A stretch of 64,000 nucleotides of DNA from Amyelois transitella (lineage: Eukaryota; Arthropoda; Insecta; Lepidoptera; Pyralidae). Numbering within the stretch: the stretch's first letter is position 1; the number at the start of each line of letters is the position of its first letter. Shown one piece after another: positions 6,401 to 63,601 of this stretch. The DNA is taken from contig NC_083533.1 in the NCBI RefSeq assembly GCF_032362555.1, positions 4,283,001 through 4,347,000 on the forward strand. Direction: 5' to 3'. The position numbers and the translations under genes are program-made. Under the pieces are notes generated by a model. That model ran no database searches, was not told the DNA's origin, and saw nothing but the letters and a program-made list of their open reading frames with translations.

Positions 6401-9400
6401 CCCGTAAGGGATATAGACGTGACCATATCCCCATCTTCCAACTCAATAATGAGGCCATACAGCTGAACGTGGCCATTCAGTCTTCGAGACTGTCGGCTCT
6501 GTCTACCCCGTAAGGGATATAGACGTGACTATATCAACATCTTCCAACTCAATAATGAGGCCATACAGCTGAACGTGGCCATTCAGTATTTGAGACTGTC
6601 GGCTCTGTATACCCCGTAAGGGGTATAGACGTGACTATATCCTCATCTTCCAGGCGATAATGGGCAGCTGGACATACAGCTGTACTGGGCCGGAGTACTA
6701 CGACACTGAGATGGACAGGGAGTTCCTGCTGGAGCTGAGGGAACTGAGAATCTTGCTGGACAAAGAGAAGGAGCATAAACAGTAAGCGTTTGTTTGTTTG
6801 TTTACATACCTACATACATATGATCACGTCTATATCCCTAGCGGGTTAGACAGAGCCAACAGTCTTGAAAACACTGATAGGCCACGCTCAGCTGTTTGGC
6901 TTTGTGATGGTATTGAGATTCAAATAGTGACATGTTGCTAGCCCATCGCCTAAAAGAGGAATCCCAGGTTTATAAGCCTATCCCATAGTCGCCTTTTACG
7001 ACATACGTGGGAAAGAGATGGAGTGGTCCTATTCTTTTTTGTAATGGTGCCGGGAACCACACGGCACTGTAATGGCACAAATTTGTTTGTTTGTAATATC
7101 TTTATTGCATAGATCTCAATTCTATCATTAAGCCAAACAGCTGAACGTGGCCTATCAGTCTTTTCAAGACTGTTGGCTCTGTCTACCCCGTAAGGGATAA
7201 AGACGTGATCATTATGTATGTATGTATGTTATTGCATAGAAATTTTTACACAGTAACAAGAAAATAGTAAGAACATGTAGTTATAAAAGAAACAATACAC
7301 TTGCAATGGCGGACTTATATATTGCCCACTTTCGGTCACAACAACAAGCGTATTTCATGATGAAAATGCTGCAGTGTAGTTTGTTCCGCCGCTTCTTCTA
7401 CACATGCGCTTTGGAAGCGGTAGTAGTTATAATTAGATTTAAGTTATGTGACGTCAATAAGTGATGCCTTGTATCCAATTTTGAAAATAAATCTATTCTA
7501 TTCACAAATAGTATGACGGCCCATTGTATAATACACGTCTCACGCACACATTCACACCAATTGTGTGACAGTCGGCAGCCATTACGTCTCAAAGATGCGT
7601 CACAGATTAACTCACGAAATGGTAAGTTTTCTGTTTGCATAACTTTTATAACAAACTACACTGCAGCATTTTAATCGGACGTCAATTTACAAATATAGAT
7701 CTCTTAAATCTAAATCGTGGACGAATGCACATTGTTGCTTCATTTTGCCGTATTGTAAAACTCCGTCCGCCTTTTTTTCTACGTCTGTGTACGTATATTA
7801 GTCTGTAAGTATTATGTATCAACAGGTTTTGATGCGTGTGAATAATAAATAAATTAAGCCATACATGCTCAACCGTGGCTTTCAGTCTTTTCAAGACTCT
7901 GTCTAAACCGTATGGGAAAGTGACGTGATTATATGTAAAGTAAAATCTATATATTTTCCATTTGTTAACAGTTTGATATGCATGCGTCTTAAACCCAAAC
8001 TGTTGGAGAAGTCTTATCAAGAGTTGGAACTAAATTTCAGGTAAGCATACCTTATTTTTATTTTATTTGTTTGAGATATTATTGAACACAAGCTGCGCCT
8101 GCAACTTCGTCCGGGTGGAATAGTTATTAGAGCATCATTGAAGCCCTCAAGGATTAATAATTTTCCCCGATTTTTTTTCACATTCTCCATTATTTTTTCG
8201 CTCCTAATAGTTGCAGCGTGATGTTATATAGCCTAAAGCCTTCCTCGATAAATGGTCTATTCGACACAAAAAATATAATAATTTTTCAATTCGAACCATT
8301 AGTTCCTGAGATTAGCGCGTTCAAACAAACAAACTCTTCAGCTTTATAATATTAGTATAGATTTAAATGTACTTGAAAGACCGTCGCTGGTCGAATCTGT
8401 AAGGTACCCGGTCAAGGTTCGAGTCCCACTTCGGCCATTTACCAATGACTGATGATTGATGGCCTCTGGCGCAGCGGTAATACGCTTGTCTGAGACACCG
8501 GAGGTCCCGGGTTCGAATCCCGGCCAGGGCTTGATGCGAAACGAACTTTCTCTGATTGATCTGGGTATTGGATGTTTATCTATCTAAGTATTTATTATAA
8601 GATATAGTATCGTTGAGTTAGTGTCTCGTAACACAAGTCGCAAACTTACTACGAGGCTAACTCGATATGTGTAATTTGTCCCGTATATATTTATAAAAAA
8701 AAAATGACTATTTACGAAGTTATGTACATTAGTTTGATAACTAACTGATGCTTTTACGGTGAGGGAAAACATCGTGAGGGAACCTGCACATTCAGGCGAT
8801 TTTTTTATATGTTATGTAAATGATGTGTTAAATGTCCCATAATAATGAATATAATTTTTTTTTAATTTAAATTTCTACTATGAAGCGACAACATTATTAA
8901 TAATTATAATAAATAACTAGTTTTTTTTTGTTAACAGGTTATACACCAGAGCGCTGGTCGGTCTCGCTTGCAACCTACACAGAGGACGCGAATTTAGGTC
9001 CTTGTTCATAGATTTACTTGAGAGGTAACGTTTATGTTCACGTCTATATAAATATAAATAAATATATACGGGACAAATTACACACACACTTTGAAACAAA
9101 TGCCCCAAGACTTAAATTTGCTACACCTTCGCACTTTAACGTCATTTTTAAAAGGACCAAAAATGTCCAGGGGAGGAGACATAAAATACGAGGGACAAAA
9201 CTAGCGTTATTTTTAAAAATAGAAATTATGTTTATTTTTGAGTTGATTTAAGTATTCAAAACGACTGATTACGCATCTTTTTAAAATAAATAAAGCTCAG
9301 AACAGGATATATAAGAACTGTATTAAATTTCAAAAACTCTGTTACAGAATAGTAAAAGGACAGGCCAGGGTAGATACTTTTTTATCGGTTAACATGCAAT

Positions 9401-38000: not shown

Positions 38001-39172
38001 CGTATAGGCACAATTATTTGAAGCACAGTCGCACGCACGAGAATAGCAATAAGGAGCCGTCGTTCTATAAATGTGATAAGTGCACGTTTGTGACTAAGTT
38101 CGAGGGCCATATAGCGAGGCATTTGGCGAAGATTCATAACGAGGTGACTGACACCGCGTATAAGTGTGATATGTGTGATTTTTCCACTAGAGTCAGGTGG
38201 AGGTTGAATATTCACAAGGCTAGGAGTCGCCAAGAGAATGTTCTGGTGTGTGCGTATTGCGATTTCCAAACTTATTTCATGTGTGAGAGTAAAAAGCATA
38301 AAGTGTTGCATTACGATGTTATGTATGGTCATAAAGGCCAACTTAGTGTGAGTACGGAATGTAAACCTACGGATATGAACGAGCATAATTCTCAAATTGA
38401 TGCGACAACTGGATTGCCCACGTATGCTAAAGAAGATATGAATGTGCATGATGATTATTTAGATTATACGCAACATCAGGACACTACGAAGTCTCAAAGG
38501 AAATACATGATTGATCCGAACTGCATAGACTGGAATAACATCCAAGTGTTGGAGTCTGACGATAAAGATAGACCGTTCCAATGTCACATGTGTTCGTACA
38601 CGTCTCGCTTCAAGGCTTCAGTGCAAAGGCATTTTCAAAGGCACCACACCGGCTCGCAAAACAGGCCATACAAGTGCATAAATTGTGATTTCTCAACAAA
38701 AACTAAAGATCAGATCGCTTTGCACAATAAGAGGAGCAAGTCTGAGGTCGGTTTGTACTGCGCTGTTTGCAAGTTTACGACCAACTTCAAATGTCAGTAT
38801 GTGATGCATCAGAAACGTCACTACGAGAACAAATGTACAGAGTGCGATTACTCGTGCAAGCACAAGTACGAGTTGCAGAAACATTACATGACTATTCACA
38901 TGGGGAACGGTCACAAATGTCAGTATTGTAATTACATCGCAGCGAGGAAGGAGAGCCTGTTGTGTCACGAGACGATTCACACGGGCATAAAGCCTTTCAA
39001 GTGTAATCATTGCGAATACATGTCTGTACGTAGATCGCTACTGAATAATCATGTGAGACGTTATCATAGTCACTTGTTGTCCGATGTAGTTGTTGTTAGT
39101 GATAGTAAAATAGAGTCTTTGAAACATGTAGGCAGTATAGATGAGGTGAATAAAGGTTTAGATTTGTCGTAG
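35004..39172 (+). CDS. 13-finger C2H2 zinc-finger protein, paralogue B
   Basis: Exons 35004-35518 and 37603-39172 join in frame (phase 2) into 694 residues. The first exon is an acidic, Ser/Asp/Asn-rich region ([16 protein letters not shown]) ending with [17 protein letters not shown], homologous to exon 2 of paralogue A. The second starts [15 protein letters not shown] and encodes the same 13-finger layout as A, with fingers 6 and 9 again missing the last His, and the linker [17 protein letters not shown]. The fingers are strongly similar between paralogues, while the N-terminal regions differ. The only intron holds a scrambled LTR retroelement and SINE pieces. The stop TAG lies inside the start of a SINE-A, and the protein ends GLDLS, close to the SLDFS of A. 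ATG 35004 follows an acceptor at 34991. Confidence 0.9.
35538..36456 (-). pseudogene. Scrambled Gypsy-type LTR retrotransposon internal fragment
   Basis: The minus strand encodes Gypsy-like gag and reverse-transcriptase pieces in the wrong order: first a gag C-terminal half (about 36440-36150, around [17 protein letters not shown]), then a gag N-terminal piece (around 36020-35870), then an RT piece (35850-35660, around [13 protein letters not shown] and [18 protein letters not shown]). Frames change between pieces, and protease, RNase H and integrase are absent. It cannot be functional. It lies in the intron of zinc-finger gene B. Confidence 0.8.
36457..37004 (+). mobile_element. 3' end of the LTR element: polypurine tract and LTR (36750-37004)
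   Basis: A purine tract (CTTGGGGGGGAG) precedes an LTR that starts TGTGGCGACATC and ends CGCTACA (255 bp), with a TATA-like GGAGCTATATATACAACC. Its plus orientation is opposite to the neighbouring gag/RT pieces, so the element is inverted or composite. The same LTR occurs alone at 51524-51777. Confidence 0.8.
37069..37560. repeat. SINE-A fragment, repeat III tail, palindrome, LINE-A end
   Basis: Antisense SINE-A part at 37069-37188. A TATTC tail of repeat III at 37225-37255. A perfect 17-bp inverted repeat (ACTTTTAATTTATACAT) at 37448-37464 and 37479-37495. A short antisense LINE-A end at 37512-37552. The acceptor of the zinc-finger exon follows at 37602. Confidence 0.8.
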
Positions 39173-47944: not shown

Positions 47945-50900
47945 CTAGGGCGCGATCTCGAGCGGGCGGAAGCGGCGCGCGCGCGCGGGGTTCGCCGGAG
48001 CCCGGGGCGCGGGCGGCGGCGCGGGCGGCGACGGCGAGCGCGGCGGCGACGCCAGCAGCGCGCCCGGCACGCCGCGCGACCCGCTCCTGGGGCGCGCCAA
48101 ACTCGCATACATTATACATACATACATACATACATAAACTCTTATTTTAGGCAATGGGTTAGCAACCTGTCTCTATTTGAACGTGGGCCACAGTTTTTTT
48201 GGGATATAGACGTGATTATATGTATGTATGTATATATCTATGTATGTATACATCCTACTACTATTATAAAGGCGAAAGTTTGTATGGATGTTTGTTACTC
48301 TTTCACGCAAAAACTACTGAACCGATTACCATGAAATTTGGTATGTAGGTAGCTGAAGACTCAGAATAACACATAGGCTACTTTTTATCCCAGAGTTCCC
48401 GCGGGATTGATAGGGTTTCCATGCGGACGAAGTCGCGGGCGGCCTCTAGTACATACATAAAATCACGCCTCTCTCAAGGAGGGGTAGGCAGAGACTACCT
48501 CTTTCCACTTGACACGATCTCTGCATACTTCCTTCGCTTCATCCACATTCATAATTCTCTTCATGCAAGCTCGGCGGTTTCGGGTACTTTTGACATGACC
48601 CTTTACCAGGCTTTTATATTATACAAGGCACACCGTGCATATATTATACATTTCTAATTATTTTTTTTTAAATACTATAGGAAATGTGCTGAAAATAATA
48701 AAATATTCACGCTGGCGAAGAAAAGATGATGCACGCTCAAATACATAGATACATACATACAGACGATCGCGTTTATATCCCTTACAGGCCACGTTCAACA
48801 ATTAGTATGTGGACTGCACTCAAATAGATATAAAATTTTACCACGAAAAGGTAGTTTCTATAATTAAAAATAATAAAAAACACAATATTTTCCTCAATAA
48901 ACAAGGGATTATTATTTTTATTTAATAAAATGTAATTAAATATTTCACCCTCTAGTCAGGTGACAATCAAAATGCGTGACGTCACTTGTTGCCAAACAAG
49001 AATTTTCGCTGTCAAGTACTTTGGTGTTTGTTGATATTTGCATCACATTATTACTGTGATTTTTCCGTGCAACTTCTTCGAAATTTACTCGATTATCTTT
49101 TTGAATAAATTTTTAAAGGTTTTCCCCATAATGGAAAGTGGATGTATAAAGGCAGATAGTTCAAATTTGCCAAGAACTGATTGCTTTATGGTGGCTGATT
49201 GCTTTATTTTCTTCGCAACGAATAGTAAATTTTGCTCTTCTGAATTTTGAAATGTGAAGACATCCATGTAAGTAATTATACTCAAGACACATTATAATAG
49301 TAATAGTAGGTATTTTTAAACTCGAAAAGGTACATTGTAAGGTAAAAATAATATAATATGATTTTGAGGTTATTTTTTTATCAAATTGTTTCATTCCTTT
49401 TTAGTTTCAATCAAGATAATAATACATTATTTTCTTATTCCTCGAGGCAGACATATGGAGACGATGCTGTGGGTTATGTCCAACTTCGTCGCGATACAAA
49501 ATTGTGCACAGTTAAACTTACATCAAAGTGATCCTCACAGAAATACATTTTACTTTGTGCAGATACAAGTGCCGGATCCCGACGACGGGCTAATTGAAGC
49601 CACATTTTCCGCATTGTTTTTGTTTATCAGGTGTTTTAATAGTTGTACTTTTACACTGCGGCACCGCACAACATTTATAATATGTAGAAACCATACTATT
49701 ATCACATAACTATTCATTACATACAACTTCGACAATGTTTGGCAACATGTGACGTCACAGCGGGCGTTAGACAGGTACCCGCGTTTTGGCGCGAAATTTG
49801 AAATGAAATTTTTAATTCATTTAAAGGTATTACTTGTAATAAAAAAACAATAATAAATAGTTTGGGTTAATTTGGAACTTATACATACATACATACATAT
49901 AATCACGTTTATACCCCTTGCGGGGTAGACAGAGCCAACAGTCTTTTAAAGACTGATAGGCCACGTTCAGCTATTTGGCTTTAAGATAGAATTGAGATTC
50001 AAATAGTGACAGGTTGCTAGCCCATCGCCTAAAAGAAGAATCCCAAGTTTATAAGCGTACCCCTTATTCGCCTTTTACGACATCTATGGGAGAGAGATGG
50101 AATGAAAGAAAGAATAGATTTGGAACTTTCCCAAAAATTGTCCACATCCCTATTAGGCTCAATGATAAAATTGGGATTCAATAAGTATATATGTACTAAA
50201 AAAAAATCTCAACTTTATAACCCTACACCTTTGTCACGTTTTACAACATCCATGAGTTTATATACTTTTTGTAGATGTCGTTAAAAGCTGCGAATAAAAA
50301 CTTATATGTGTGTGTGTGTATGTATGTATGTAGTCACCTGTCGCGTTGCTGCGGCGGCTGCCGGTGCCTGGGGCGCGCGAACCTCAGGTTCAGTTCCCGC
50401 GCGGGGTCCACCGCGTACTTCTCGTTGCCGTTCAGCCGGCGACGTCTCAGCGCTGGAAGATGCAAAATATATATATATATAAATAGTACCTGGTCAACCG
50501 AGCGGTGCTCGGTGAACGTTAGTGTTACTTATTGAACTAGCTGTGCCCGCGACTTCGTCCGCGTGGAATATTTATTTTGGGCATCATTGAAGCCCTCGCG
50601 GATGAATAATTTTCCCAATTTTTTCACAAATTCCATTATTTCTTTGCTCGTTATAAATGCAGCGTGATGCTATATAGCCTAAAGCCTTCCTCGATATATC
50701 CTTCCTCCTCCTTCCATCTACTGTAGGAATAACAAACTTTGTAACTTTGATTGACGGCCTCTGCGGCGCAGCGGTAGTACGCACTGTCTGTGACACCGGA
50801 AATCCCGGGTTCAAATCCCGGCCAGGGCATGAGGAGAAAAGAACTTTCTCTGATTGGCCTGGGTCTTGGACGTTTATCTATATAAGTATTTATTATAAAA

Positions 50901-53900
50901 TATAGTATCGTTGAGTTAGTATCTCGTAACACAAGTCTAACTCAATCAGTGTAATGTCCCGTATATATTTATTTATTTATTAATTTATATTTGTAACTAT
51001 ACTTCCTTCCTTCCTTCCTTATATATTATATATATATATATGTCTATGTATATATATATATGTGTCTATGTATATATATATATGTGTCTATGTATATATA
51101 TATACCTGGAGTGAGGTCAGGCGGCGACAAGGGCCCGTCGCCGCTCCAGGACAGACATTTGGCGAGCCGGCTCTCGTACACGGGAATGCGGGACGTACTG
51201 CCGGACGAACGCTGAAAATTATATATATATATAAGGTTTTTCAATAACACCGTCAATGAAACACAATTAAGTTTCTCTGAAATTAAACAAGTTGTTTCTT
51301 TTACATTGTAATGTCTAATTAATACGTATTCACATTGAATATCATATTTCAATTATTCCTTACATAACTGAAATTATAGAAACGACATTTAATGTTTATA
51401 ATACGGTGTCAGTTTCTGTTTTTTCCAAATTATTTAAGAGTGTACAATATCGAGTCGGTTATGAATGTATTTTCTTCAAATAGACAAATCAAATGACGCG
51501 GCTCCGTGACATTGACGTATGTTTGTAGCGGGAGCGATGATTCGGCTCGACCGCCACCAAAGGGAAGATCTTCCGCCAGCTGGTGTGACGCCTGGGGAAC
51601 CGCGCGACAGACGATGTTGTGTCGGAGGTTGTATATATAGCTCCAATCCGTGAAATCTTTGAAATAGCGTCTTAGATTCTTCGCTGCTATTGGTTGAGCG
51701 CGTCAATTTCTTCGCGATGATTGACAGTTGTTGTGTGATTTGATGTTTGTGACGAGTGGCGTAGAGATGTCGCCACATGTTCATTCGCGGGAGAATTTGA
51801 AATATGAAAAGTGCCTATAGGTGATTTCCTTAACACATATTATTATGTATATGTATATAAAATGTGCCGTGTGGTTCCCGGTACCAATACAAAAAAAAAT
51901 AGGACCACTCCGTCTCCTTCAAATGGATGTCGTAAAAGGCAACTGAGGGATTGGTTTACAAATTTGGGATTCTTTTCTAGGCGATAGGCTAGCAACCTGT
52001 CACTATTTGAATCTCAATTCTATCATTAAGCCAAACAGCTGAACGTGGCCATTCAGTGTTGTCAAGACTATTGGCTCTGTCTACCCCGCAAGGGATATAG
52101 ACTTGACCATATGTATTTTTATTTATATATTTATGTACAACAAGTAAAATAAGAAAAAAATCTTAAACTCAGTACAAGGGCACTACTTATTTCTAGAGAA
52201 AATGTATGTATCACTACATAGTATAAAACAAAGTCGCTATTTTAGTCTGTTTGTCTGTATGCTTAAATCTTTAAAATTACGCAACGGATTTTGATGCGGT
52301 TTTTTGTAACAGGTAGAGTGATTCAAGAGGAAGGTTTTTATGTATATTAACATTTATAATTTTGCACCCGTGCGAAGCCGGGGCGGGTCGCTAGTGTATA
52401 TATAAAATTCTCGTGTCACAATGTTCGTTCCCGTACTACTCCGAAACGGCTTGACCTTTCTCTCATGAAAGTGAGCATATTGAGTAGGTCTGAGAATCGG
52501 CCAACATCTATTTTTCATACCCCTTAGTAATAAGGGTTGTACACACTTAACATTTTTTTTTAACTAGAAATTCCTTAAAATATTTATATGGCAAAACAAC
52601 GTTTGCCGGGACAGCATATAATATAATACTTGACTTTACCACACCGCTGCGCCACAGAGGGCGTCAAACGCCCTCTGTGGCGCAGCGGTAGTACGCTTGT
52701 CTGTGACACTGGAGGTCCCGGGTTCGAATCCCGGTCAGGGCATGATGAGAAACTAACTTCCTCTGATTGACCTGGGTCTTGGATGTTTATCTATATAAGT
52801 ATTTATTATAAAATATAGTATCGTTGAGTTAGTATCTCGTAACACAAGTCTCGAACTTACTTCGAGGCTAACTCAATCTGTGTAATTTGTCCCGTATATA
52901 TTTATATATATATATATACTCACGTCTCGTAAACTTTGCGAGCCGTCGCCACCACCACTGGAAGATTCACGTTTCACGACAGGACTGAAACAAATATTAT
53001 ATATATTAGTAATTTTAATCGGTGGTAGAGTGGTTAATGTGACCGGCTTCAAGTCAGGTGTATAATGGGTTTAAAAAAAAAACATTATAGGGTATAATTT
53101 GGTGCCGTGTGCTTTCAAACACATTAGAATAGCCATTTAATGTCTTAGCAAATGTTGAAAAAGGCGACTTAGGGATAGTCTTTTAGGCGAAAAGCTAGCA
53201 ACCTGTTAATATTTGAATCACGATTCCATCATAAAGCCATACAACTGAACGCGGTCTATCTGTCTTTTCAAGCCTGTTGGGTCTGTCTACCCCGCAAGGG
53301 ATATAAACGTGATTATATGTATGTATCTATGTAATTATATGTATATATGTATGTATCTATGTGATTATATGTATGTAATCAATCAATCAATCAATCAACT
53401 GACTGTATGTATATAGCATGTGTAGAGAAATACCTGTCAGGAATAGCGTCAAGCCTCGTCTTCTCCACGGCAGGGCTTTGGCTTTTATCGCCCACGCTCC
53501 GGGTTGAGGATCTGTGGACAAACAGACATACACACATAATTATAACCATTTTTTTTATTACATATTTAAATTTCATATAAGTCAATTAATAACAGCAATG
53601 CATTCTCTCGTCCACATTTCTATTCTTACTTCGGACAGTTGTTATTGTAGATAATGCTACAAAAAAAAAAATAGGACCAATCCATCTCTTTCCCATGGAT
53701 GTCGTAAAATGCGACTAAGGGATAGGCTTATAAACTTGATTCTTCTTCTAGCGACTGGCAACCTGACCTGGCAACCATTTACTATAAGCCTATCCCTTAG
53801 TCGCCTTTAACGACACCCACGATAATGATATGAGAGTGGTCCTATTCTTTCCATCCCCATTGATGCCGGGAGCCACACGGCACGTTTCGACAACAACCGG

Positions 53901-56900
53901 GTATGATTCTCTGATGGAGGGGGATGGGGGTAGGGGGGTAGGGGGGGTAGGCAGCGACTCACCGTTTGTCCCTGTGGTGCTCCGTGGCGTCGTAATACAC
54001 GGAAGCCTCCTCGTTGGGTCTCAGCGGCTCCCCGCCGCTCACAACGGAGTGAATTTTAACTGTAACAAGTTATTTATTCAAACTTTATTGTACATACATA
54101 CATATGGTCACGTCTATATCCCTTGCGGGGTAGACAGAGTCAACAGTCTTGAAAAGACTGATAGGCCACGTTCAGCTATTTGGCTTTAAGATAGAATTGA
54201 GATTCAAATAGTGACAGGTTGCTAGCCCATCGCCTAAAAAAGAATCTCAAGTATGTAAGCTGTTGGAATAATGTAAACAACGCCCATGCCTGTACAAGAC
54301 TATTTTATCTGTGGCCCGGTTGTGGCGCCATCCGTCAACTTTTTTCTCTTACGCTGCGTACCGCCAACTGTATAGCTTGACCTTTAAATAAACTGTTTTA
54401 ATTTTCGTTAAGTCTTTAATTGTTTTATTTCTACACTAGAGGCCGCCCGCGACTTCGTCCGCATGGAAACCCTATCAATCCCGCGGGAACTCTGGGATAA
54501 AAAGTAGCCTATGTGTTATTCTGGGTCTTCAGCTACCTACATACCAAATTTCATGGTAATCGGTTCAGTAGTTTTTGCGTGAAAGAGTAACAAACATCCA
54601 TACAAACTTTCGCCTTTATAATAGTAGAAGGATAAGCCCATCCCTTAGTCGCCTTTTACGACATCCATGGGAAAGAAACGGAGTGGTCCTATTATTTTTT
54701 GTATTTGTGCCGGTAACCACACGGCACAAACACGGAACGGCACGGTTCTACGAGTATATATTTGATAATAAATATATAAAATTAATAATTTAATTTCCGT
54801 CACACTGTACGGCCACGTAATGAGAAGAGATGATGACCATATGACTAAGAAAGTTCTGAGTATGGAGGAAGGCAGAAGACCCCGCGGAAGACCTCCAATG
54901 ACCTGGATGCAGACAATAAAGAATCAACTGAAGAGTACACGCATTAACAAACAGACAACCCACGACCGTGTGGTGTGGCGCAGAAATACTAGGAGGGCTG
55001 ACCCCAAATAAATTGGGACAATAGCCAGGAGAATGAGAAAGAAGAAGAAGAAGAAGAAGCACCGACCCGAGTGTCCGGCGGAGTGGCTGTCGGGCGGGCG
55101 CACGCGGATCTCGAGGCGGCTGGAGACCGTGGCCTCGGCGCGGGGCGGCGACGCCGGCCGCGGGGGCGAAGCCCTAGACGATATGCTCTGCAATGTTATA
55201 ATAATCATATACAGGGTGATATTTAAAACAACTGTATCCTTTTAAAGGTAGACTATACCCATGCTTCTGAGCCGTTTGAGCCTATTTTTATTTAAATTAA
55301 ACGTCATCATTTTCACATTTAAAAAACGCTCAAAAACTACGTCACACGCTTTATTGAAGACCAATACTACAAATAGAAATTAAAACTAAACATGTAAATA
55401 AATGTCTGAAAAATAAATAATTTTTCTAGTATCAAGATCAAGTAAAGTACAGAGTTGTCGAGATCGCTAAGCTGAATGAATTATGTCGTTGACCTCTGAA
55501 TCTTACGCGTCGCCTTTCCGCCGACCGGGGTGGTGGAATAATTTTTTTTCGTGCTTTTCGAAATATGAACCGATATTATTCTTTTGATGTTTTTAAATAT
55601 CCTTTAGATGAGTACACTTAACAGTTGAATTTATGCAGTTGAATTAAAAGTCACCCTGTATACATATATATATGTATGTTATCACGTATAATTGCGACAC
55701 ATCACGCCGCTATACATATATATGTCTGTTATCACGTATAATTGCTATACATCGTGCCGCTGTAAGTATAAATATATATCACAGTACTGACGGGCAGGCT
55801 GCGCGCGCGCGGCGCTGCTGCGGCGAGCTGCGCACGCGCCGCCACGCCGCGCATGACGTCGAGGCGGTAGCGCAGGCTGCCGCCCGCGAACTCGAAGCTG
55901 GCCTGCTGCAGCAGCGGCGGCGACAGCTCGCGCACGTGGGAACCTGTGGACCAAAAACAATAACATAATCACGTCTATACCTATCCACTGCGGGGTAAAC
56001 AGAGCCAACGGTCGTCAAAAGACTGAAAGGCCAGGTTCAGCTGTATAAATATTAATAAATGGCATATTTAATACTCATCTTATTGGTGCCATGTGGTTCC
56101 CGGCACTAATACAAAAAACAGAATAGGACCACTCCATCTCTTTCCCTTCAACTCAATTTGAACTTAAAATTCTTTTTTAGGCGATGGGCTAGCAACCTGT
56201 CACTATTTGAATCTAAATTCTATTATTAAGCCAAATAGATGAACATGGCCATTCAGTCTTTTCAAGACTGTCGGCTCTGTCTACCCCGCAAAGGATATAG
56301 ACGTGATCATATGTATGTATGTATTAATGCCATGTGGTTCCCGGCACTAATGCCGACAGAAATTGAGATAGATAGATAAACTCTTTATTGCACCATAAGA
56401 GAAAACATACAAAACAGCACAAAGCAGATATAGATGGTACAAAGGCGGACTTATCGCTAATGCATTTCTCTTCCAGTCAACGTATTGAGTAGAAAGAGCG
56501 AAGAGACAATTGAAACAAGAGTAATTGAATATAAAATACTGTAAATTGAGAGTTAACATACCATAAAATCACGTCTATACCTATCCACTGCGGGGTAAAC
56601 AAAGCCAACAGTCATCAAAAGACTGAGAGGCTGTGCTCAGCTGTATAAATATTAATAAATGGCATATTTAATGCTCATATCATAGTTCCCGGCACCAATA
56701 GAAAAAATAATAAAGGACCACTCCATCTCTTTTCCGTGGATGTCGTAAAAGGCGACTAAGGGATAGGCTCATAAACTTGGGATTCTTGTTTTAGGCGATG
56801 GAACAGCAACCTGTCACTATTTGAATCTCAATTCTATCATTAAGCCAAATAGCTGAATGTGGCCATTCAGTCTTTTCAAGACTGTTGGCTCCGGATACCC

Positions 56901-59900
56901 CGAAAGGGATATAGACGTGACCACATGTATGTATGTTATACCTTCATAAGATAGTAGAAAGACAGTGTTAACTTTGTAAGCCTATCCCTTAGTCGCCTTT
57001 TACGACATCCATGGGAAAGAGATGGAGTGGTCCTATTCTTTTTTGTATTGATGCCGGGAACCACACGGCACACACCCCCAAGATATCTCAAAGGTGTTGA
57101 CTAGTTTTCGCTTGAAACAGCAACAAACATACACACACATCATCAATGACTAACGCATGTTATCATAGTTAGAGATCGGATATTCGGATGCATATTTACC
57201 TAAAGTTGGGGTGTTGGGTTAGTATGGAACGTACTTCTGTACCTCACAAATTCCGGGATTCGGCATTGATACACTTAATGTTCTAATTATGTATTCAATA
57301 ATATAAACTGTATTCGTACTGTCTAAAAATCACGCGGTATAATTCTGGAATCCCGGTAGGTAGGTAATTTTTTAATAAATATGATCATCCATCACTTATG
57401 TTTATAAAGGTGTTTATCATACCATAAATATACGATAAGTTTCAATTTCTTGTTTAATAAAATTTCCGGGATTCAAAATAATTCGAATCCCGAAACCAAG
57501 AAGCCGCCTCCATACTTTCTTAGCCAAAATATTAGTTTAGGTAAAATATGCATCCGATTATCCGATTTCTTATCGTAGTAGAATGATATCAATCTTACCG
57601 ATGGCAGGTGAGGTCCAGCACCTCGGCAAGGCGGGCCTCAGCTGGGGATAGGCAGCGATCCCGGGGATGTTGAGGGTGGCGGGCGCGCGCGGGGGCTCTG
57701 TGCGCGCCGCCGCGCCGGGGGACGTGGCCGGCTGGGAACGACGAGATGTTTACTTACATATATACATACATACTTATAATACATTACTTTTTTTTTTATT
57801 AGGTACCTTTTAAAATTTAATTTTTGCATATACATTTACTAACACTATCTCTAAGATTTCTGTATTACTAACAAAGTGGATCATGATATCTGAATAATAA
57901 ATAAATTAAAATAAAGTATTAAATAAAAATAATTCAACATTTTAATTAATTACAATTAATACAACTTACAATTAATTCAATTTTTTGTGCCGTGTGGTTT
58001 CCGGCACCAGTACAAAAAAGAATAGGATCACTCCATCTTTTTCCCATGGATGTCGTAAAAGGCGACTAAGGGATAGGCTTAAAAACTTGGGTTTCTTCTT
58101 TTAGGCGATGGGCTAGCAACCTGTCACTATTTGAATCTCAATTCTATCATTAAGCCGAATAGCTGAACGTGGCCTATCAATCTTTACAAGACTGTTAGCT
58201 CTGCCTACCCCGCAAGGGATATAGACGTGACCATATATATGTATGTATGTTAATTAATTACTATGGGACATTTCAACACCACTTGATAGTTGTCATATCT
58301 TTTGGTTTCACAACATCTAAGTTTACTGCCGCTTCCAAGGCGTCAGTGCAGATGAAGCGGTAAGCGGTGCACTGCAGCATTTTCTTCAACAACATCAACT
58401 TCACAATTATCAAAACTTAGAATAGTAACAAATTAAGGACGTCCTGGTAAAGGGTCAGGTCAAGAGTACCCGAAACCGCCGAGCTTGCATGAAGAGAGTT
58501 ATGAATGTGGATGAAGCGAAGAATGATATGAAATGCAGAGATCGTGGCAAGTGGAAAGAGGTAGTCTCTGCCTACCCCTCCGGGAAAGAGGCGTGATTTT
58601 ATGTATGTATGTATTCCTACCTGTTCAGGCTGTTTGTCCGTCTCCACCGTCGGTTGCGCGTGCACATTGTTGACCATCTGCGTTCTGGGCGCGTTAGCGC
58701 AGCTCGACACCGCTGAGGTACCAGTCTGAGGGTCAGATAAGATTGGATGTGGTTATTATACAATTTTGTATTTTATACATATTGTGGTCGATGGCTGACC
58801 GGAGATGAGTATCATAATAATTATATATATATATTTTAACTGTTGATGGAATTAAGTTCTTTTGTATACAGTAACTAAATGCTAACTTATATCATTATTG
58901 GAGTAGGTAAAAAGTTATTTGTTACTAACACTAAGTTTTTTGTAGTATTTACTTGGCACCGTCTTCGAAGTTATTTAATACTTAATAATTAAATTGTTTA
59001 TGTTTCTTTTAATTAAGTCGAAATTATTTGTAGAAGTTAATTTAATTTTTACTTTTTAGTTTCCGTTTTGAAGTTGGTTTTTTTCTTTATTGTATTAGTG
59101 TTTTGTATCTGTGAGGACCTGTATGATTGACCATTTGTTTTACATATGTGGCGCTATTTTTTGGAAACGGTTGTTGGTCTTCCAAATAAATACAATAACC
59201 ACATCTAATCTATTTGACGTTATTCTTTTTAAGAAATGGAAATCATATACAATACATAATTTTTTGGTCTGTCGCGTGTTTGACTAAACATTAAAGAGGA
59301 TAAAAAAAATCATCACTTTTTGCTTAAGACGTCGTCTTATTGCACTATAACGTTGACATTTTGCGCACTTAATTAGACATTTTGCGACAAATATTTTTTT
59401 TTTAAACTTGCTCACCTGCTCCGTCTGTTTGTTCGTCTGCGCCGGCGGCTGCGCCTGCGCATTGTTGACCACCTGCGTTCTGGGCGCGTTGGAACAACTG
59501 GACACGGCCGAGACGCCAGTCTGGGGGTTCCGACTGCACCGGTGTTCTGGGGACTGGAGTGGTACTTACTTAAATATGGTTGGTTTTTGAACGTTTGAAA
59601 AAAAAAAACAAACTAATTTTTATTGTCACCAACTAAAAAATAATGTTAACGAATTGTGAATAAAGAAAATTACATTACATACATACATACATACATATCA
59701 TCACGTCTATATCCCTTACGGGGTAGACAGAGCCAACAGTCTTGAAAAGACTGAAAGGCCACGTTCAGCTATTTGGCTTAATGATAGAATTGAGATTCAA
59801 ATAGTGACAGGTTGCTAGCCTGTCGCCTAAAAAAGAATCCCAAGTTTGTAAGCCTATCCCTTAGTCGCCTTTTACGACATCCATGGGAAAGAGATGGAGT

Positions 59901-61005
59901 GGTCCTATTCTTTTTTCTATTGGTGCCGGGAACCACACGGCAAATTACATTACTAATCTAAAATATATTGTTTAAAAATACAACATACATACATATATTA
60001 TTTTACAATAATAAAAAAAAAAACTATTCTAAATTACAAAGATAATTATTTAAATTTTGACGGCCAGCGCATGATGGATGGTAAACGAACAATATTTTAT
60101 TATTCTAAAATAACATTTAATTTATTATCATAATAAATTATAAAAGTGTTTATTTCATCTCCACAATTTCAAAATTTATACAATAATAAAATCTTTAAAA
60201 CTTCTTCTGATACTGAGTGACTACCCAACAAGGGATATAGACGTGATAATATGTATGTATGTATGTATGTATGTATCTTACTTGTAATTGTTCCTGTTTC
60301 CACTCATTGTCCGTGGTCTCCTCAGAGTCGTCGAATTGAGACTTCCATAGTGACACCAGCGTTAGCGCACCTCCCTTAGTCACCTGTGAGGGAAATATAT
60401 ACATTTAAACTTTTACGACACGCACGGGAACGAGACGTTCTCCTATCCTTGTTTTTTTTTCGGCATCGAAAAACACACAACGAGAAACTATCGATGATCG
60501 ATTATTGATTAATATCGAATTAAAATTCTGAAATAAGATTAAATTCAGCAAATTAATTTATTTATTTATCTTCTTAGTATTATAGTAATTATGCAGGTTG
60601 ACTAAGCAGATATAAAAGGAGAGTGTGGAGGGAAAGGTCGGAGTGGGAAGGCCTAGACGAACGTATCTTGATCAAATTAAGGACGTCCTGGTAAAGGGTC
60701 AGGTCGAGAGTACCCGAAACCGCCGAGCTTGCATGAAGAGAGTTATCAATGTGGATGAAGCGAAGGAAGTATGCAGAGATCGTGGCAAGTGGAAAGTGGT
60801 AGTCTCTGCCTACCCCTCCGGGAAACCGGGGTGATTTTATATATGTAAGTAAGTAAGTAAGTAAGTAAATGCTTTATTGTTCACTAAAGGAGTACATTAC
60901 AAATAAAAACAGTACAGTATGTATGTATGTATGTATGTATGTATGTATGTATGTATGTATATACGTATGTATGTATGTATGTATGTATGTCTGTATGTAT
61001 GTATG

Positions 61006-61039
<34 letters not shown>

Positions 61040-61293
61040 TATATGTATGTATGTATGTATGTATATACGTATGTATGTATGTCTGTATGTATGTATATAT
61101 GTATGTATGTATGTCTGTATGTATGTATGTATGTATATATGTATGTATGTATGTATATATGTATGTATGTATGTATATATGTATGTATGTATGTATGTAT
61201 ATACGTATGTATGTATGTCTGTATGTATGTATATATGTATGTATGTATGTCTGTATGTATGTATGTATGTATATATGTATGTATGTATGTATG

Positions 61294-61327
<34 letters not shown>

Positions 61328-63137
61328 TGTATTCTATTCTAATTCATTCTTACCTGTTGTAAAGCGGACACGTTCTCATCGTCCATCACGGCGAATTGCG
61401 TGTAGCTCTGGTCGGCGCGCGGGCGGCTGCGGCGCGGGCCTGGGGCGGAACGCACGAGAAACACGTTATAACACACACACATACATTAGTTTGTGTACCA
61501 ACCGACGACGCCCTAACACAAGAACCATGTTCACGACGAAATTTTACAAGTTACATACATACATTAGTTTGTATACCAACCGAAGACGCTCTAACAAATG
61601 AAACAATGTTCACGACGAAATTTTCCATGTTACATACATACATTAGTTTGTATACCAACCGACGACGCTCTAACGGCGGGGGAACGTACATTAGTTTGTA
61701 TACTAACCGACGTTAACTACTATTACTACATTATATACCTGAACGTCGCCTTTCAGTCTATTTGCGACTCTTAGCTCTGACGTAACTAAAAGTATGTATG
61801 TATGTATATATGTAATTAGGACAAGAATCGAAATATATTTTATATATATACATTTTTTATATTGGTGCCGTGTCGTTCCCGGCACCAATATAAAAAAGAA
61901 TAGGACCACTCCATCTCTTTCCCATGGATGTCGTAAAAGGCGACTAAGGGATAGGGGCTTACAACCTTGGGATTCCTGTTTCAGGCGATGGGCTAGCAAC
62001 CTGTCACTATTTGAATCTAAATTCTATCATTAAGCCGAACAGCTGAACGTAGCCCATCAGTCTTTGACTGTTGGCTCTATCTATCCCGCAAGACGTGATC
62101 ATATGTATATATGTATGTATCGAAACCTATAAATATATGTAACCCACCTCTTTTGAAATGCGTGTCTGAGTGTACACTGTCCACGTCGGCTACTATACGC
62201 GGGCTCACTGCTTCGCCTGAAAAATACATTTATACATACATACATATGAACATAATACAATAGCACGTCTCCATCATTTACGGGGTAGACAGGGTCAACG
62301 ATCACGAAGAATCTATACTAATATTATAAAGCTGAAGAGTATGTTTGTTCGTTTGTTTGAACGCGCTTATCTCAGGAAGTACTGGTGCGAATTGAAAAAT
62401 TCTTTTTACGTTGAATAGACCATTTATCGAGGAAATCTTAAGGCTAAATAACATCACGCTTCAACTATTAGAAGCGAAGAAATAATGGAAAATGTAAAAA
62501 AAAACGTGGAAAATTATTCATCCTTGAGAGCTTCAAAGATGCCAAAAATAACTATTCCACGCGGACGAATTCGCGGGCACAGCTAGTGAGTATGCAAGAG
62601 GAAGTATGAAAGTAGCGCCAATAAATGAAAATGATGAATGGTAATAAGCTGGGTTGGTACGGACACATCACGAGAAGAGAGGCAGGTCATGTTACTAAAA
62701 GGTCAGGTCATGTTACTAAAAGGTCAGGTCATGTTACTGAAAGGTCAGGTCATGTTACTAAAAGGTCAGGTCATGTTACTAAAAGGTCAGGTCATGTTAC
62801 TAAAAGGTCAGGTCATGTTACCGAAAATGAGATGAACGGACGGCGTAAAGGATGGTACGAGGAGAAAGGGAGTGACCAGTGATATGGCAATTGACAGAAG
62901 TAATTGGAAACAAACTAACATACTGTGCCGACCCCGCGTAGAAAGTGGGAAAAGGTAACGACGAAGAAGAAGAATAAATAAATAAACATATATATATATA
63001 TATATATATATATGTTTATTTATTTATTCTTTTTCTTATATATATATATATATATATATGTTTATTTATTTATTCTTTTTCTTCGTCGTTACCTTTTCCC
63101 ACTTTATAAATAATAATATAAATAATAATAATAAATA

Positions 63138-63171
<34 letters not shown>

Positions 63172-63601
63172 TATTTATTTATTTTTATTATATTATTTAT
63201 AAAATTTGTTTTATTTTCTCGACCTCTGAGTCGGTTTCTTGTCGAATTCCCGTCCTGAAGCCTTCAGGAAGAGGGAGAATATTATTTATATTATATTATA
63301 CTAGAGGCCGCCCGCGACTTCGTCCGCATGGAAACCCTATCAATCCCGCGGGAACTCTGGGATAAAAAGTAGCCTATGTGTTATTCTGGGTCTTCAGCTA
63401 CCTACATACCAAATTTCATGGTAATCGGTTCAGTAGTTTTTGCGTGAAAGAGTAACAAACATCCATACAAACTTTCGCCTTTATAATAGTAGTAGGATAT
63501 ATTATAATTACCGGGCGTTGCCGGCGATGTTGAAGCCAAATCTTGTACGCACGTTGGTGGAGCCGTGACCACCCGAAGCCGGGCTAATGTTGGACCGCCA
63601 C
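47945..63601 (-). CDS. Fifteen 3' exons of a Pro/Ser/Arg-rich protein gene, product not recognised
   Basis: Exons 5' to 3': 63601-63512, 62216-62148, 61439-61354, 60383-60282, 59520-59416, 58725-58621, 57731-57599, 55943-55783, 55187-55067, 54059-53963, 53511-53434, 52984-52924, 51211-51106, 50452-50338, 48086-47945. All junctions keep frame (phases 1,1,0,0,0,0,1,0,1,2,2,0,1,2), giving 522 residues to TAG; the N-terminus is beyond the window. It is mostly disordered: an acidic early part (GALTLVSLWKSQFDDSEETT), then Pro/Ala/Ser-rich regions, a basic RRRRLNGNEKYAV block, and a C-terminus of SPPRSPSPPAPPPAPRA type. I do not recognise a domain; a scaffold or cytoskeletal adaptor is only a guess. 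Exons 59520-59416 and 58725-58621 are tandem duplicates. The 63.5-kb exon is the least certain. The 55783 boundary uses a weak donor (ACT|GTGATA). Confidence 0.78.
48253..48449 (+). mobile_element. Helitron-B, complete 197-bp copy
   Basis: TCCTACTACTATTATAAAGG to GGCGGCCTCTAG, inserted between A and T. The lengths of the copies at 54436-54632 and 63301-63497 are identical. Confidence 0.92.
48450..48975. repeat. LINE-A end and SINE-A scraps
   Basis: Antisense LINE-A 48450-48612 directly follows the Helitron. A SINE-A scrap lies at 48744-48830 (CATACAGACGATCGCG, CAGGCCACGTTCA). The remainder to 48975 is AT-rich. A further sense SINE-A 3' part lies at 48130-48240, before the Helitron. Confidence 0.7.
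48976..49758 (+). pseudogene. TIR-bounded element carrying a broken SWIM/YqaJ-like gene fragment
   Basis: 23-bp inverted repeats (GTGACGTCAC[T/A]TGTTGCCAAACA; 48976-48998 and 49736-49758, one mismatch) enclose 783 bp. Inside, on the plus strand, a start codon at 49131 opens MESGCIKADSSNLPRTDCFM with a premature TGA 39 codons on. A donor-like CATCCAT|GTAAGT follows, then a second segment at 49447 reading TYGDDAVGYVQLRRD before another stop. The two blocks resemble the N-terminus of a widespread insect family of SWIM-zinc-finger/YqaJ-nuclease-like proteins as I remember it; this assignment is from memory. The gene is clearly dead (nonsense codons, no nuclease domain). Confidence 0.6.
49883..50250 (-). 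mobile_element. SINE-A plus a diverged second fragment
   Basis: Antisense SINE-A 49883-50115 lacks its head. A second worn antisense stretch (AGGCTCAATGATAAAATTGG to CAACATCCATGAG) follows to 50250. Confidence 0.8.
50537..50990. mobile_element. Truncated Helitron-A and a tRNA-SINE
   Basis: Antisense Helitron-A 50537-50697 starts CTAGCTGTGCCCGCGAC but lacks its 5' end. The sense tRNA-SINE 50752-50990 has CGGCGCAGCGGTAGTACGC and B box GGTTCAAATCC. A (CTTC)n and (TATG)n tract follows to 51100. Confidence 0.88.
51524..51777 (-). mobile_element. Solo LTR with 4-bp target duplication
   Basis: The minus strand reads TGTGGCGACATCTC...GCTACA (254 bp) and is flanked by direct TGTT repeats (51520-51523 and 51778-51781, plus strand). 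It matches the LTR at 36750-37004. No internal domain is present, so it arose by LTR-LTR recombination. Confidence 0.85.
51864..52116 (+). mobile_element. SINE-A, full length
   Basis: GTGCCGTGTGGTTCCCGG to GACTTGACCATATGTA, with few changes. Confidence 0.92.
52400..52918. mobile_element. Helitron-C and tRNA-SINE with inverted head fragment
   Basis: Sense Helitron-C 52400-52616 (AATTCTCGTGTCACAATG to GCCGGGACAGC, CTAG lost). The tRNA-SINE sense copy spans about 52668-52918. Its first 22 bases are mirrored at 52643-52664, forming a perfect hairpin. The SINE tail (TATATA) runs into the donor at 52923. Confidence 0.88.
53101..53885. mobile_element. SINE-A copies around exon 53511-53434
   Basis: Sense diverged copy 53101-53325 with an expanded (TATG)n tail. 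A sense part at 53655-53765 is followed by an antisense head part at 53780-53885, joined at the CAACC boundary. Confidence 0.78.
54092..54727 (-). mobile_element. SINE-A interrupted by a solo LTR and a Helitron-B
   Basis: The antisense SINE-A (54092-54260 and 54633-54727) is split by a 175-bp solo LTR (54261-54435, TGTTGGAATAATG to TTTCTACA) plus a 197-bp antisense Helitron-B (54436-54632). TAAGC flanks the pair (54256-54260 and 54633-54637), the target duplication of the LTR insertion. The Helitron lies at the A|T between the LTR end and the second TAAGC. Confidence 0.88.
54800..55060 (+). mobile_element. LINE 3' end, second family, with (GAA)n tail
   Basis: The plus strand encodes GHVMRRDDDHMTKKVL, RPRGRPPMTWMQ, then RVVWRRNTRRADPK and stop, the classic C-terminus of a non-LTR polyprotein, followed by GAATGAGAAAGAAGAAGAAG. 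The tail stops six bases from the donor of the minus-strand exon 55187-55067. Confidence 0.85.
55212..55658. mobile_element. Complete mariner-type MITE
   Basis: Terminal repeats CAGGGTGATATTTAA and its near complement (TTAAAAGTCACCCTG) are bounded by TA on both sides. It is noncoding, 447 bp. A truncated sister lies at 4285-4535. Confidence 0.85.
55962..56937. repeat. Tandemly duplicated SINE composite
   Basis: Each unit has an antisense SINE-A fragment (CACGTCTATACCTATCCACT), then TATAAATATTAATAAATGG, then a sense SINE-A. Units: 55962-56330 and 56566-56937. Between them lies an antisense LINE end (56372-56485, matching that at 4.1-4.27 kb). Confidence 0.85.
56970..57071 (-). mobile_element. 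SINE-A head fragment
   Basis: Antisense, TAAGCCTATCCCTTAGTCGC to CACACGGCAC only. Confidence 0.88.
57171..57570. mobile_element. 400-bp MITE with about 35-bp imperfect terminal repeats
   Basis: The left end AGAGATCGGATATTCGGATG..ATATTTACCTAAA is mirrored at the right (TTTAGGTAAAATATGCATCC..CCGATTTCT). It is noncoding. The right end is 27 bases from the donor of the minus-strand exon 57731-57599. The superfamily is undetermined. Confidence 0.75.
57987..58613 (+). mobile_element. SINE-A, repeat III variant and LINE-A end
   Basis: Sense SINE-A 57987-58250, full length. Sense-like repeat III variant 58262-58385. LINE-A sense 58433-58613 (AAATTAAGGACGTCCTGG to GTGATTTTATGTATGTATG), whose tail reaches position +7 of the donor of exon 58725-58621. 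Confidence 0.88.
58736..59415. other. Intron between the duplicated exons
   Basis: AT-rich and free of the window's repeat families. It contains (TA)n near 58822 and no recognisable gene. It separates the two copies of the duplicated exon. Confidence 0.5.
59672..59942 (-). mobile_element. SINE-A, full length
   Basis: Antisense copy with a long CATACATACATACATACATA tail and a near-consensus body, hence probably young. The interval 59943-60281 holds only AT-rich DNA, a tRNA-SINE scrap (GACGGCCAGCGCATGATGG) and a SINE-A 3' scrap (60222-60276). Confidence 0.92.
60605..60852 (+). mobile_element. LINE-A 3' end, longest copy
   Basis: An open frame of 69 codons ending [11 protein letters not shown] and TGA encodes the LINE C-terminus (VGVGRPRRTYLDQIKD). 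The tail has become (GTAA)n, and a further LINE-like end (GCTTTATTGTTCACTAAAGG) follows to 60915. Confidence 0.85.
60918..61332. repeat. (GTAT)n microsatellite array with higher-order pattern
   Basis: About 415 bases of GTAT with regularly placed variants (ATATACGT, GTCTGTATG, GTATATATG). The variant cassette recurs with ATATACGT at 60959, 61063 and 61199. The apparent long Tyr/Met/Cys/Val reading frames here are artefacts. Confidence 0.95.
61484..61716 (+). repeat. Tandem repeat of about 74 bp
   Basis: Units starting ACATTAGTTTGTRTACCAAC recur near 61484, 61560 and 61640, with a partial unit at 61690. The first two include ATGTTCACGACGAAATTTT. Confidence 0.82.
61851..62110 (+). mobile_element. 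SINE-A with mirrored 5' flank
   Basis: The sense copy starts at 61864. Its first 18 internal bases after the head (CGGCACCAATATAAAAAA) are exactly mirrored upstream (61851-61868), producing an 18-bp perfect hairpin. Confidence 0.88.
62312..62586 (+). mobile_element. Helitron-A, complete
   Basis: TCTATACTAATATTATAAAG to GCGGGCACAGCTAG, between A (62311) and T (62587), 275 bp, with the GC hairpin before CTAG. Confidence 0.92.
62590..62970 (+). mobile_element. LINE 3' end containing a 21-bp minisatellite
   Basis: The frame reads NKLGWYGHITRREAGHVTKR, then the 21-bp unit AGGTCATGTTACTAAAAGGTC repeated about seven times (62685-62825), then a degenerate tail with CCGACCCCGCGTAGAAAG and GAAGAAGAAG. 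This is a second-family LINE C-terminus, as at 54.8 kb. Confidence 0.85.
62943..63190. repeat. Two nested palindromes with (TA)n centres
   Basis: GTGGGAAAAGGTAACGACGA..AATAAATAAATAAACATATA is mirrored by TATGTTTATTTATTTATT..TCGTCGTTACCTTTTCCCAC (62943-63107). A second, shorter inverted pair AATAAATAAACATATA/TATATGTTTATTTATT lies at 63128-63182. Confidence 0.9.
63301..63497 (-). mobile_element. Helitron-B, complete 197-bp copy
   Basis: The plus strand starts CTAGAGGCCGCCCGCGACTT and ends AGTAGTAGGA, between A and T. It is almost identical to the copy at 54436-54632. Confidence 0.92.

What the first reader, a model, noticed from the sequence alone, without database searches (positions are those of the whole stretch)
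47945..63601. Retroelement tails and simple repeats sit on splice donors of one gene
In the 15-exon minus-strand gene, an unusual share of donors run into a retroelement 3' tail or its microsatellite within about 8 bases: GTAAGATACATACATAC (60282), GTAGGAATACATACATAC (58621), GTCGGTGCTTCTTC (55067), GTGAGTATATATATA (52924), GTATATATATATACATAG (51106), GTGACTACATACATAC (50338). The elements are antisense to the gene, so their primed 3' ends face the exon. Possible causes are endonuclease preference for donor-like sites, purifying selection that leaves exons as islands, or tails being recruited as donors. It matters for gene prediction and for how the host tolerates insertions.
Basis: partly seen in the sequence, partly recalled or inferred. 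Interest (0 to 1): 0.7.

Follow-up and report, generated by a model that had tools for sequence, protein, structure and literature searches.

The report
Retroelements insert beside splice donors
In this moth-like genome, several kinds of small retroelements sit, tail first, just past predicted splice donor sites far more often than past look-alike sites, and two copies carry duplications showing that they inserted across the edge of a donor sequence that was already there.

Summary
All six strings exist, one base below the stated coordinates. The gene is real: 12 exons in the window form one open 441-residue frame, and the same strand just outside the window encodes a tau-tubulin kinase. SSRs within 8 bp of the donor: 6 of 12, expected 0.23 (post hoc).

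It is not confined to one gene. An antisense element with its 3' tail starting at most 25 bp past the donor occurs at 13 of 35 donors of three neighbouring genes. Among donors not chosen for the pattern it is 8 of 63, against 8 of 574 unused donor-like sites (P 4e-5) and 16 of 2453 GC-rich positions. In two cases 12-14 bp target-site duplications contain the exon end plus the donor, with a second copy beyond the element, so the donor sequence came first.

Best reading: target-primed insertion biased to functional donors, primed from the coding strand. The cause, perhaps transcription- or splicing-coupled, is inferred. Donor-motif preference, tail recruitment and intron gain are disfavoured. 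No RNA data or second species were available.

The parts
63512..63601 (-). Exon E0 of the tau-tubulin kinase-type gene; donor G at 63511, GTAATTATAATATATCC
   Evidence: Phase chain K11(1)-E0(1)-E1(1) read by eye; weaker than E1-E12
63378..63511 (+). RTE-like 3' end, antisense to the gene, tail start +6 of the E0 donor
   Evidence: (seed taken from this copy)
61354..61439 (-). Exon E1; donor G 61353; SSR (GTAT)n begins 21 bp into the intron
60702..61332 (+). F2 element 3' end plus its very long (GTAT)n tail facing the E1 donor
60282..60383 (-). Exon E2; donor G 60281 (GTAAG then ATACATAC)
60218..60276 (+). 5'-truncated F1 3' end and tail, antisense, at +6 of the E2 donor
59416..59520 (-). Exon E3 (105 bp, 35 codons); donor without an element
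   Evidence: no repeat masked in its intron
58621..58725 (-). Exon E4, a divergent 105-bp duplicate of E3; donor G 58620 (GTAGGA then ATACATAC)
58429..58614 (+). F2 element with tail, antisense, at +7 to +10 of the E4 donor (5' limit set by the repeat mask)
   Evidence: the F2 library entry is this copy, the family is multi-copy (51 seed hits)
57599..57731 (-). Exon E5; donor without an element
55792..55943 (-). Exon E6; an F1 3' end lies 23 bp upstream of its acceptor
55067..55187 (-). Exon E7; donor G 55066 (GTCGGTG then CTTCTTC)
54947..55059 (+). (GAA)n-tailed 3' end, antisense, at +8 of the E7 donor; 5' extent unknown
   Evidence: library entry taken from this copy; RTE-like reading frame by recall
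53963..54059 (-). Exon E8; donor without a close 3' end (sense F1 at +80); F1 3' end 34 bp upstream of its acceptor
52924..52984 (-). Exon E9; donor G 52923 (GTGAGT then ATATAT)
52670..52918 (+). tRNA-like SINE F3 with (TA)n tail, antisense, at +9 of the E9 donor
   Evidence: library entry is this copy, the family is multi-copy (32 seed hits)
51106..51211 (-). Exon E10; donor G 51105 (GTATATATATA)
50758..51104 (+). F3 3' end followed by a 128-bp SSR array that runs up to the E10 donor
50338..50452 (-). Exon E11; donor G 50337 (GTGACT then ACATACATAC); SSR only, element not identified
47945..48086 (-). Terminal exon E12 with stop
3475..3620 (+). FIBP-like exon; donor G 3621 GTGAGTATATAATTACGTC, an F1 remnant read by eye
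   Evidence: (PF05427)
4580..4679 (+). FIBP-like exon; donor G 4680; nearly full-length antisense F1, tail at +23
6654..6781 (+). FIBP-like exon; donor G 6782; antisense F1, tail at +21, (GTTT)n target-site duplication; F1 3' end 13 bp upstream of its acceptor

Best explanation
Several unrelated tailed retroelements (F1 and F2 SINE-like elements, tRNA-like SINE F3, at least two RTE-like 3' ends) insert by target-primed reverse transcription preferentially into DNA just downstream of functional 5' splice sites. The coding strand is nicked about 5-25 bases into the intron. The exon-donor strand then serves as primer, so the element ends up antisense with its 3' tail against the donor. The second cut can fall inside the exon, so the target-site duplication can copy exon end plus donor: one copy stays on the exon, a second lies beyond the element. 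Insertions in the exon or in donor positions +1 to +5 are removed by selection, which sets the sharp inner edge. SHOWN: enrichment at real donors; little or none at unused donor-like sites and none at GC-rich edges; antisense excess at the three-gene donors; duplications at some sites. INFERRED: that the bias arises at insertion, and its cause. My best guess is exposure of the non-template strand at transcribed 5' splice sites (paused polymerase, R-loop, or U1-bound nascent RNA).
For: 13 of 35 donors in three genes have an antisense 3' tail at 25 bp or less (12 without the self-derived GAA entry); none has a sense element that close, the nearest being at 26. Donors not chosen for the pattern: 8 of 63 (myosins 5 of 53, choline kinase 2 of 6, a C13 protease 1 of 4) against 8 of 574 unused donor-like GTs, odds ratio 10, P 4e-5. 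GC-rich edges: 16 of 2453. TSDs: K0 TTGAGGTGAGTACT and FIBP F1x CAGGTACGTCTA span exon end plus donor; F5x 13 bp within an SSR. In two myosin introns, copies of intron positions +12 to +23 and +9 to +18 lie at or near the element's far end. More than 60 bp from splice sites, orientation is nearly even in two of three genes (24 anti to 17 sense, 7 to 8). Donor strength is similar with and without a tail (P 0.72).
Against: TSDs that span the donor were found at 2 of 14 near-donor elements tested on C29 and at 0 of 5 myosin ones; one of the two, K0, is a predicted exon without homology support. Of the seven homology-backed kinase exons K1-K7 only K4 shows the pattern. Myosin donors show a weaker effect, 5 antisense tails against 4 sense ends within 27 bp; 10 of 13 myosin gene groups have no antisense case and 3 of the 5 come from one gene. 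In choline kinase antisense prevails everywhere (10 to 1). The three genes share about 111 kb of one contig, and two were found through the pattern. Acceptors also show close element ends (7 of 34 within 13-40 bp). No RNA, expression or population data and no second species, so insertion bias is not separated from unusual survival.
Confidence: 0.5

Rival explanations
1. Selection only: insertions are random, exons and acceptor tracts are cleared, and the short donor motif lets elements survive closest to donors (the mammalian 'hazardous zone' account).
For: Mammalian elements under 20 bp from exons are mostly at donors, and antisense prevails outside human SINEs (PMC3088655). The inner edge at +6 fits selection on the donor core.
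Against: Selection can only lower density, yet density at +5 to +25 exceeds that of other positions: 13 of 35 donors against 818 of 90957 non-TE positions, 0.9%.
Confidence: 0.17
2. Protected survival: elements beside exons last longer because deletions reaching into exons are purged, so donor-side copies accumulate.
For: Element density in these genes is high (1.65-2.09 per kb). The 4 close sense ends in the myosin set are 5'-truncated.
Against: It should act at acceptors and on both orientations too (inference), and near-donor F1 copies are not older (88% identity, n=6, against 85.5%, n=110).
Confidence: 0.12
3. Endonuclease preference for the donor sequence itself (GTRAG).
For: Tails start right after GTRAG(T) in several cases. 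Unused donor-like sites are slightly above the downstream rate (1.4% against 0.9% per 20 bp).
Against: That excess is far below the 37% and 13% at real donors; no motif in 208 F1/F2 flanks apart from a C at -1 that probably belongs to the tail; several element families; variable offsets.
Confidence: 0.06
4. Tails recruited as donors, or introns created by the insertions (introner-like).
For: At 51105 and 50337 the SSR lies inside or just after the donor core.
Against: TSD copies show the donor sequence pre-dating two insertions; no exon-end copy beyond chance follows in the introns of E0-E11; several such donors lie in conserved kinase, FIBP and myosin frames.
Confidence: 0.05
5. Regional peculiarity or sampling effect: a repeat-rich stretch of C29, read because it looked striking.
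For: The three-gene rate (37%) is well above the unchosen rate (13%); 10 of 13 myosin gene groups show no antisense case.
Against: The unchosen set, 57 of 63 donors on other contigs, is still about nine times the pseudo-donor rate, P 4e-5.
Confidence: 0.1

Closest known systems
Donor-side, antisense bias of intronic TEs in human and mouse (Zhang, Romanish and Mager 2011, PMC3088655; abstract, section 8 and passages read)
   Same: Among elements under 20 bp from exons most lie at donors, and antisense prevails outside human SINEs.
   Different: [quoted passage not shown] Here donor-proximal density is above background, with 3' tails against donors and some TSDs that copy donors.
RTE-type 3' ends that seed microsatellites in Lepidoptera (Tay et al. 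2010, PMC2887409; abstract, discussion and passages read)
   Same: Short 3' UTR/SSR tails, abundant 3'-end copies, TSDs of 6-12 bp.
   Different: They state that insertion sites do not appear sequence-specific; a word search of that paper found no 'splice'.
Lepidopteran SINEs: Plutella PxSE (PMC8010984, passages read) and Helicoverpa HaSE (PMC3272025, abstract, outline and section 14 read)
   Same: tRNA- or 5S-derived SINEs, 44-51% of Plutella copies in introns.
   Different: Distance to donors is not reported in what I read; I did not assign F1-F3 to these families.
Introners (PMC9860276, search listing only)
   Same: Mobile elements tied to introns and splice sites.
   Different: Here the donor pre-exists where testable and the element is only part of a larger intron.

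Membership tests
TPRT-inserted non-LTR elements / SINEs | Intact 3' end with SSR tail at the junction | tested here: met
   13 of 35 donors
TPRT-inserted non-LTR elements / SINEs | Target-site duplication flanking copies | tested here: met
   K0, F1x, F5x among 14 near-donor elements (null P 0.005 or less each, 200 random pairs); 17 of 55 full-length F1 copies, these included, score 9 or more; likely copies at 2 of 5 myosin elements (no null printed)
TPRT-inserted non-LTR elements / SINEs | Partner LINE sharing the 3' end; Pol III promoter | not tested
   F3 looks tRNA-like by eye only
Site-specific non-LTR elements | Fixed target motif at fixed offset | tested here: not met
   No donor motif in 208 F1/F2 flanks; unused donor-like sites near background
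Mammalian-type survivorship (underrepresentation zone) | TE density near exons below random | tested here: not met
   Donor side far above background
Mammalian-type survivorship (underrepresentation zone) | Closest elements biased to donors and antisense | tested here: met
   13 antisense to 0 sense within 25 bp in three genes; myosins only 5 to 4 within 27 bp
Introners | Element supplies splice sites and makes up the intron | tested here: not met
   Donor copies pre-date the element at two sites; window introns E0-E12 mostly hold several repeats
Tau-tubulin kinase gene | TTBK kinase domain on the same strand and phase chain | tested here: met
   phmmer TTBK1 E 1.6e-23 for the first two kinase exons; further kinase motifs exon by exon; link to E1-E12 by strand, order and phase only

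The most novel reading that the evidence does not exclude
Retrotransposition in this lineage is guided to 5' splice sites of transcribed genes, for example by RNPs tethered to U1-bound nascent RNA or by non-template-strand exposure at donor-paused polymerase. Unrelated elements share a co-transcriptional target that spares the host because the target-site duplication regenerates the donor.
Probability: 0.27. Interest if true: 0.88.

Novelty: new variant of a known kind. Interest (0 to 1): 0.68.

Why it matters
If the bias arises at insertion, it is a targeting mode for non-LTR elements that lets a genome carry a heavy SINE load inside genes, and it leaves a second donor copy beyond elements whose duplication spans the donor. 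That would affect intron size, alternative donor use and gene prediction in Lepidoptera-like genomes. It also makes a concrete test possible: where new insertions land relative to nascent-transcript splice sites.

Tried and rejected
Exon-end copies downstream of E0-E11: none beyond chance. '3' ends face exons on both sides': dropped, because acceptors are balanced within 150 bp. GC-step targeting: rejected. Weak donors need a tail: no difference. Donor-spanning tandem duplications as a second donor-specific event: 6 of 35 donors against 8-10% of positions in the same introns, so not shown to be donor-specific. Pfam and PDB searches with the 442-residue C-terminal part gave no significant hit. 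Genome-wide counts of a donor-plus-tail pattern were never obtained.

Sampling and dropped rows: 60 of the 79 myosin matches were sliced (domain ends, single long frames and some weaker matches left out). 7 of 60 slices were dropped after viewing because the match end was not a convincing exon end (L042, L070, L071, L074, L076, L091, L094); three of them (L070, L071, L074) hold an element. One search used 52 valid slices; the tally is 53. L081 (SSR only) is not counted. Six further C29 donors with an SSR or remnant seen by eye (K11, E1, E10, E11, F3x, C3) are not in the 13. The acceptor count of 7 leaves out one internal GAA-library match at K0. Myosin and protease offsets were first read by eye and then confirmed with the routine. 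The F2, F3, GAA and RTEb library entries come from near-donor copies; without GAA and RTEb the three-gene count is 12. The donor weight matrix is recalled, not fitted, and some 'unused' donor-like sites may be real donors.

Full report
WHAT WAS CHECKED. The window lies in a 327-Mb, 33-contig genome (contig C29, 4283001-4347000). All six donor strings are present exactly, one base below the given coordinates, on the minus strand.

THE GENE. Reading exon by exon gave E1-E12 (61439 to 47945) with AG/GT borders and fitting phases. Joined, they give one open frame of 441 codons ending in a stop. E0 (63601-63512) fits by phase. Upstream of the window on the same strand lie tau-tubulin kinase exons: the start with the glycine-rich loop (PDB TTBK1, E 1.6e-23), HRDIKP, RYASINAH and the kinase C-lobe. 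The window gene is therefore most likely the C-terminal half of an insect TTBK gene (Asator, recalled). The C-terminal part has no Pfam or significant PDB match. K0, the first exon I use, and K8-K11 are predictions from coding score and splice borders, without homology support.

THE ELEMENTS. Repeats were masked by self-comparison and then with a library of genomic copies: F1, F2, F3, two RTE-like 3' ends, and a (GAA)n-tailed end. In the window gene a repeat edge lies within 12 bp of four of 12 donors by the blind mask (E0 11, E2 2, E4 0, E9 5 bp). E7 joins them with the library, but its library entry is that very copy; the element's RTE-like nature is recalled. SSRs within 8 bp: 6 of 12 donors, expected 0.23 from the same introns, P 2e-8. 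That P is post hoc.

NOT ONE GENE. Two conserved genes nearby show the same. Choline kinase: PDB E 1.8e-30. FIBP: PF05427, E 6.8e-55. Over 35 donors in the three genes, 13 have an antisense element whose 3' tail starts at 25 bp or less (offsets 6-23): TTBK 8 of 24, choline kinase 2 of 6, FIBP 3 of 5. None has a sense element that close; the nearest sense end is at 26. Without the GAA entry the count is 12. Among the seven kinase exons backed by homology (K1-K7) only K4, at HRDIKP, has it.

CHOICE OF SAMPLE. Choline kinase was found by coding score in loci fetched to follow FIBP, a protease gene on C13 by coding score in a locus fetched by place, and myosin exons were chosen by family before their sequence was seen (60 of 79 matches sliced). 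Myosins give 5 of 53 valid slices with close antisense tails (L064, L078, L079, L082, L096) and 4 with close sense, 5'-truncated ends at 13-26 bp. The protease gives 1 of 4 (tail at 16). The unchosen total is 8 of 63.

CONTROLS. Unused donor-like GT sites (score 3 or more) have an antisense 3' end at 5-25 bp in 8 of 574 cases (1.4%), close to the rate further downstream (0.9% per 20 bp). All non-TE positions: 818 of 90957, 0.9%. Positions with a GC-rich upstream 60 bp: 16 of 2453. Fisher P is 1e-12 for the three genes against unused sites (2e-11 without GAA) and 4e-5 for the unchosen set. The 250 other 3' junctions show at most a slight excess of donor-like sequence near the tail (7, then 6, 5, 5, 5, 4 per 20-bp bin), and 208 F1/F2 flanks show no donor motif, only AT-richness and a C at -1 that probably belongs to the tail. 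Donors with and without a tail score alike.

DUPLICATIONS. At K0 of TTBK (C29:4364609) a full-length antisense F1 is flanked by TTGAGGTGAGTACT: the last five bases of the predicted exon plus donor. The second copy runs on into GTACG, the old intron. At FIBP (C29:4278995), in an exon with Pfam support, CAGGTACGTCTA flanks a full-length F1 in the same way. At FIBP 6782 a 13-bp copy lies within (GTTT)n. In two of five myosin introns tested, a 12-bp copy of positions +12 to +23 (L079) sits at the element's far end and a 10-bp copy of +9 to +18 (L064) near it (no null printed). In the first two cases the donor sequence therefore existed before the insertion, and the staggered cut straddled the exon edge. 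The other 11 of 14 near-donor C29 elements gave no clear TSD, which in old or truncated copies is uninformative; 17 of 55 full-length F1 copies anywhere score 9 or more.

WHAT SPEAKS AGAINST. Away from splice sites orientation is 24 anti to 17 sense (TTBK), 7 to 8 (FIBP) and 10 to 1 (choline kinase), so antisense excess is not donor-specific in choline kinase. 10 of 13 myosin gene groups have no antisense case, and 3 of the 5 come from one gene. Acceptors have 7 of 34 element ends within 13-40 bp, 4 sense-3' and 3 antisense-5', so exon edges in general are not empty. Intron element density is 1.65-2.09 per kb in these genes, above the 0.59 3' ends per kb of random loci, though the two figures count different things.

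MECHANISM. Target-primed insertion with the coding strand as primer yields exactly this anatomy; that step follows from established TPRT biology and the TSDs. That the peak reflects insertion rather than survival is inferred from density above background at real donors. Why real donors: the effect is shared by several element families, far weaker or absent at donor-like DNA, absent at GC-rich edges, and mostly antisense. This fits exposure of the non-template strand at transcribed 5' splice sites, but no expression, R-loop or nick data were available. Mammalian introns show donor-side and antisense bias among the few surviving close elements within a zone of depletion (PMC3088655; abstract, section 8 and passages read). 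Here the zone is enriched. Searches for prior reports of donor-targeted insertion showed none that I recognised, but most listed only part of the matching papers (for example 12 of 160) and cover only the held open-access library.

VERDICT. It is a multi-gene effect rather than a quirk of one gene. Interest 0.68.

Noticed in passing
L010 (C29:4356001-4366000), TTBK exons K3, K5, K6, K7; choline kinase exon C2 in L030: Exon 3' ends with their donors are tandemly repeated into the intron (129-bp unit six times, 264 bp x3, about 311 bp x3, about 400 bp x3), leaving decoy donors. Frequency is not clearly above other positions of the same introns, but random loci have far fewer local copies (23 of 5040).
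   Followed up: partly
window 59416-59520 and 58621-58725: E3 and E4 are a duplicated 105-bp exon (35 codons, both phase 0), diverged; they could be alternative exons.
   Followed up: no
window 60917-61332: A (GTAT)104 array of 416 bp between an F2 3' end and the E1 donor, an extreme tail expansion.
   Followed up: no
window 6336-6652: A 106-bp unit of F1 3' end plus a sequence like the next FIBP acceptor, three times, just before that exon.
   Followed up: partly
window 14808-16829 (-): 673-codon open frame that reads like a piggyBac-type transposase (recalled), with a donor-like GTGAGT next to an F1 tail near 16862.
   Followed up: no
window 25830-26621 (+), 29334-30989 (-), 37577-39172 (+); also L029 and L013: Several zinc-finger open frames (by eye), two of them (29334 and 37577) evidently paralogous.
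   Followed up: no
window 52600-52700: Two F3 5' ends head to head, giving an inverted repeat (read by eye).
   Followed up: no
C8:2175-2190k (slices L045, L064, L079, L080, L082, L092, L098): One myosin gene has antisense 3' ends at 3 of 7 donors, like C29, while the muscle-type gene on C12 has 0 of 9; post hoc.
   Followed up: partly
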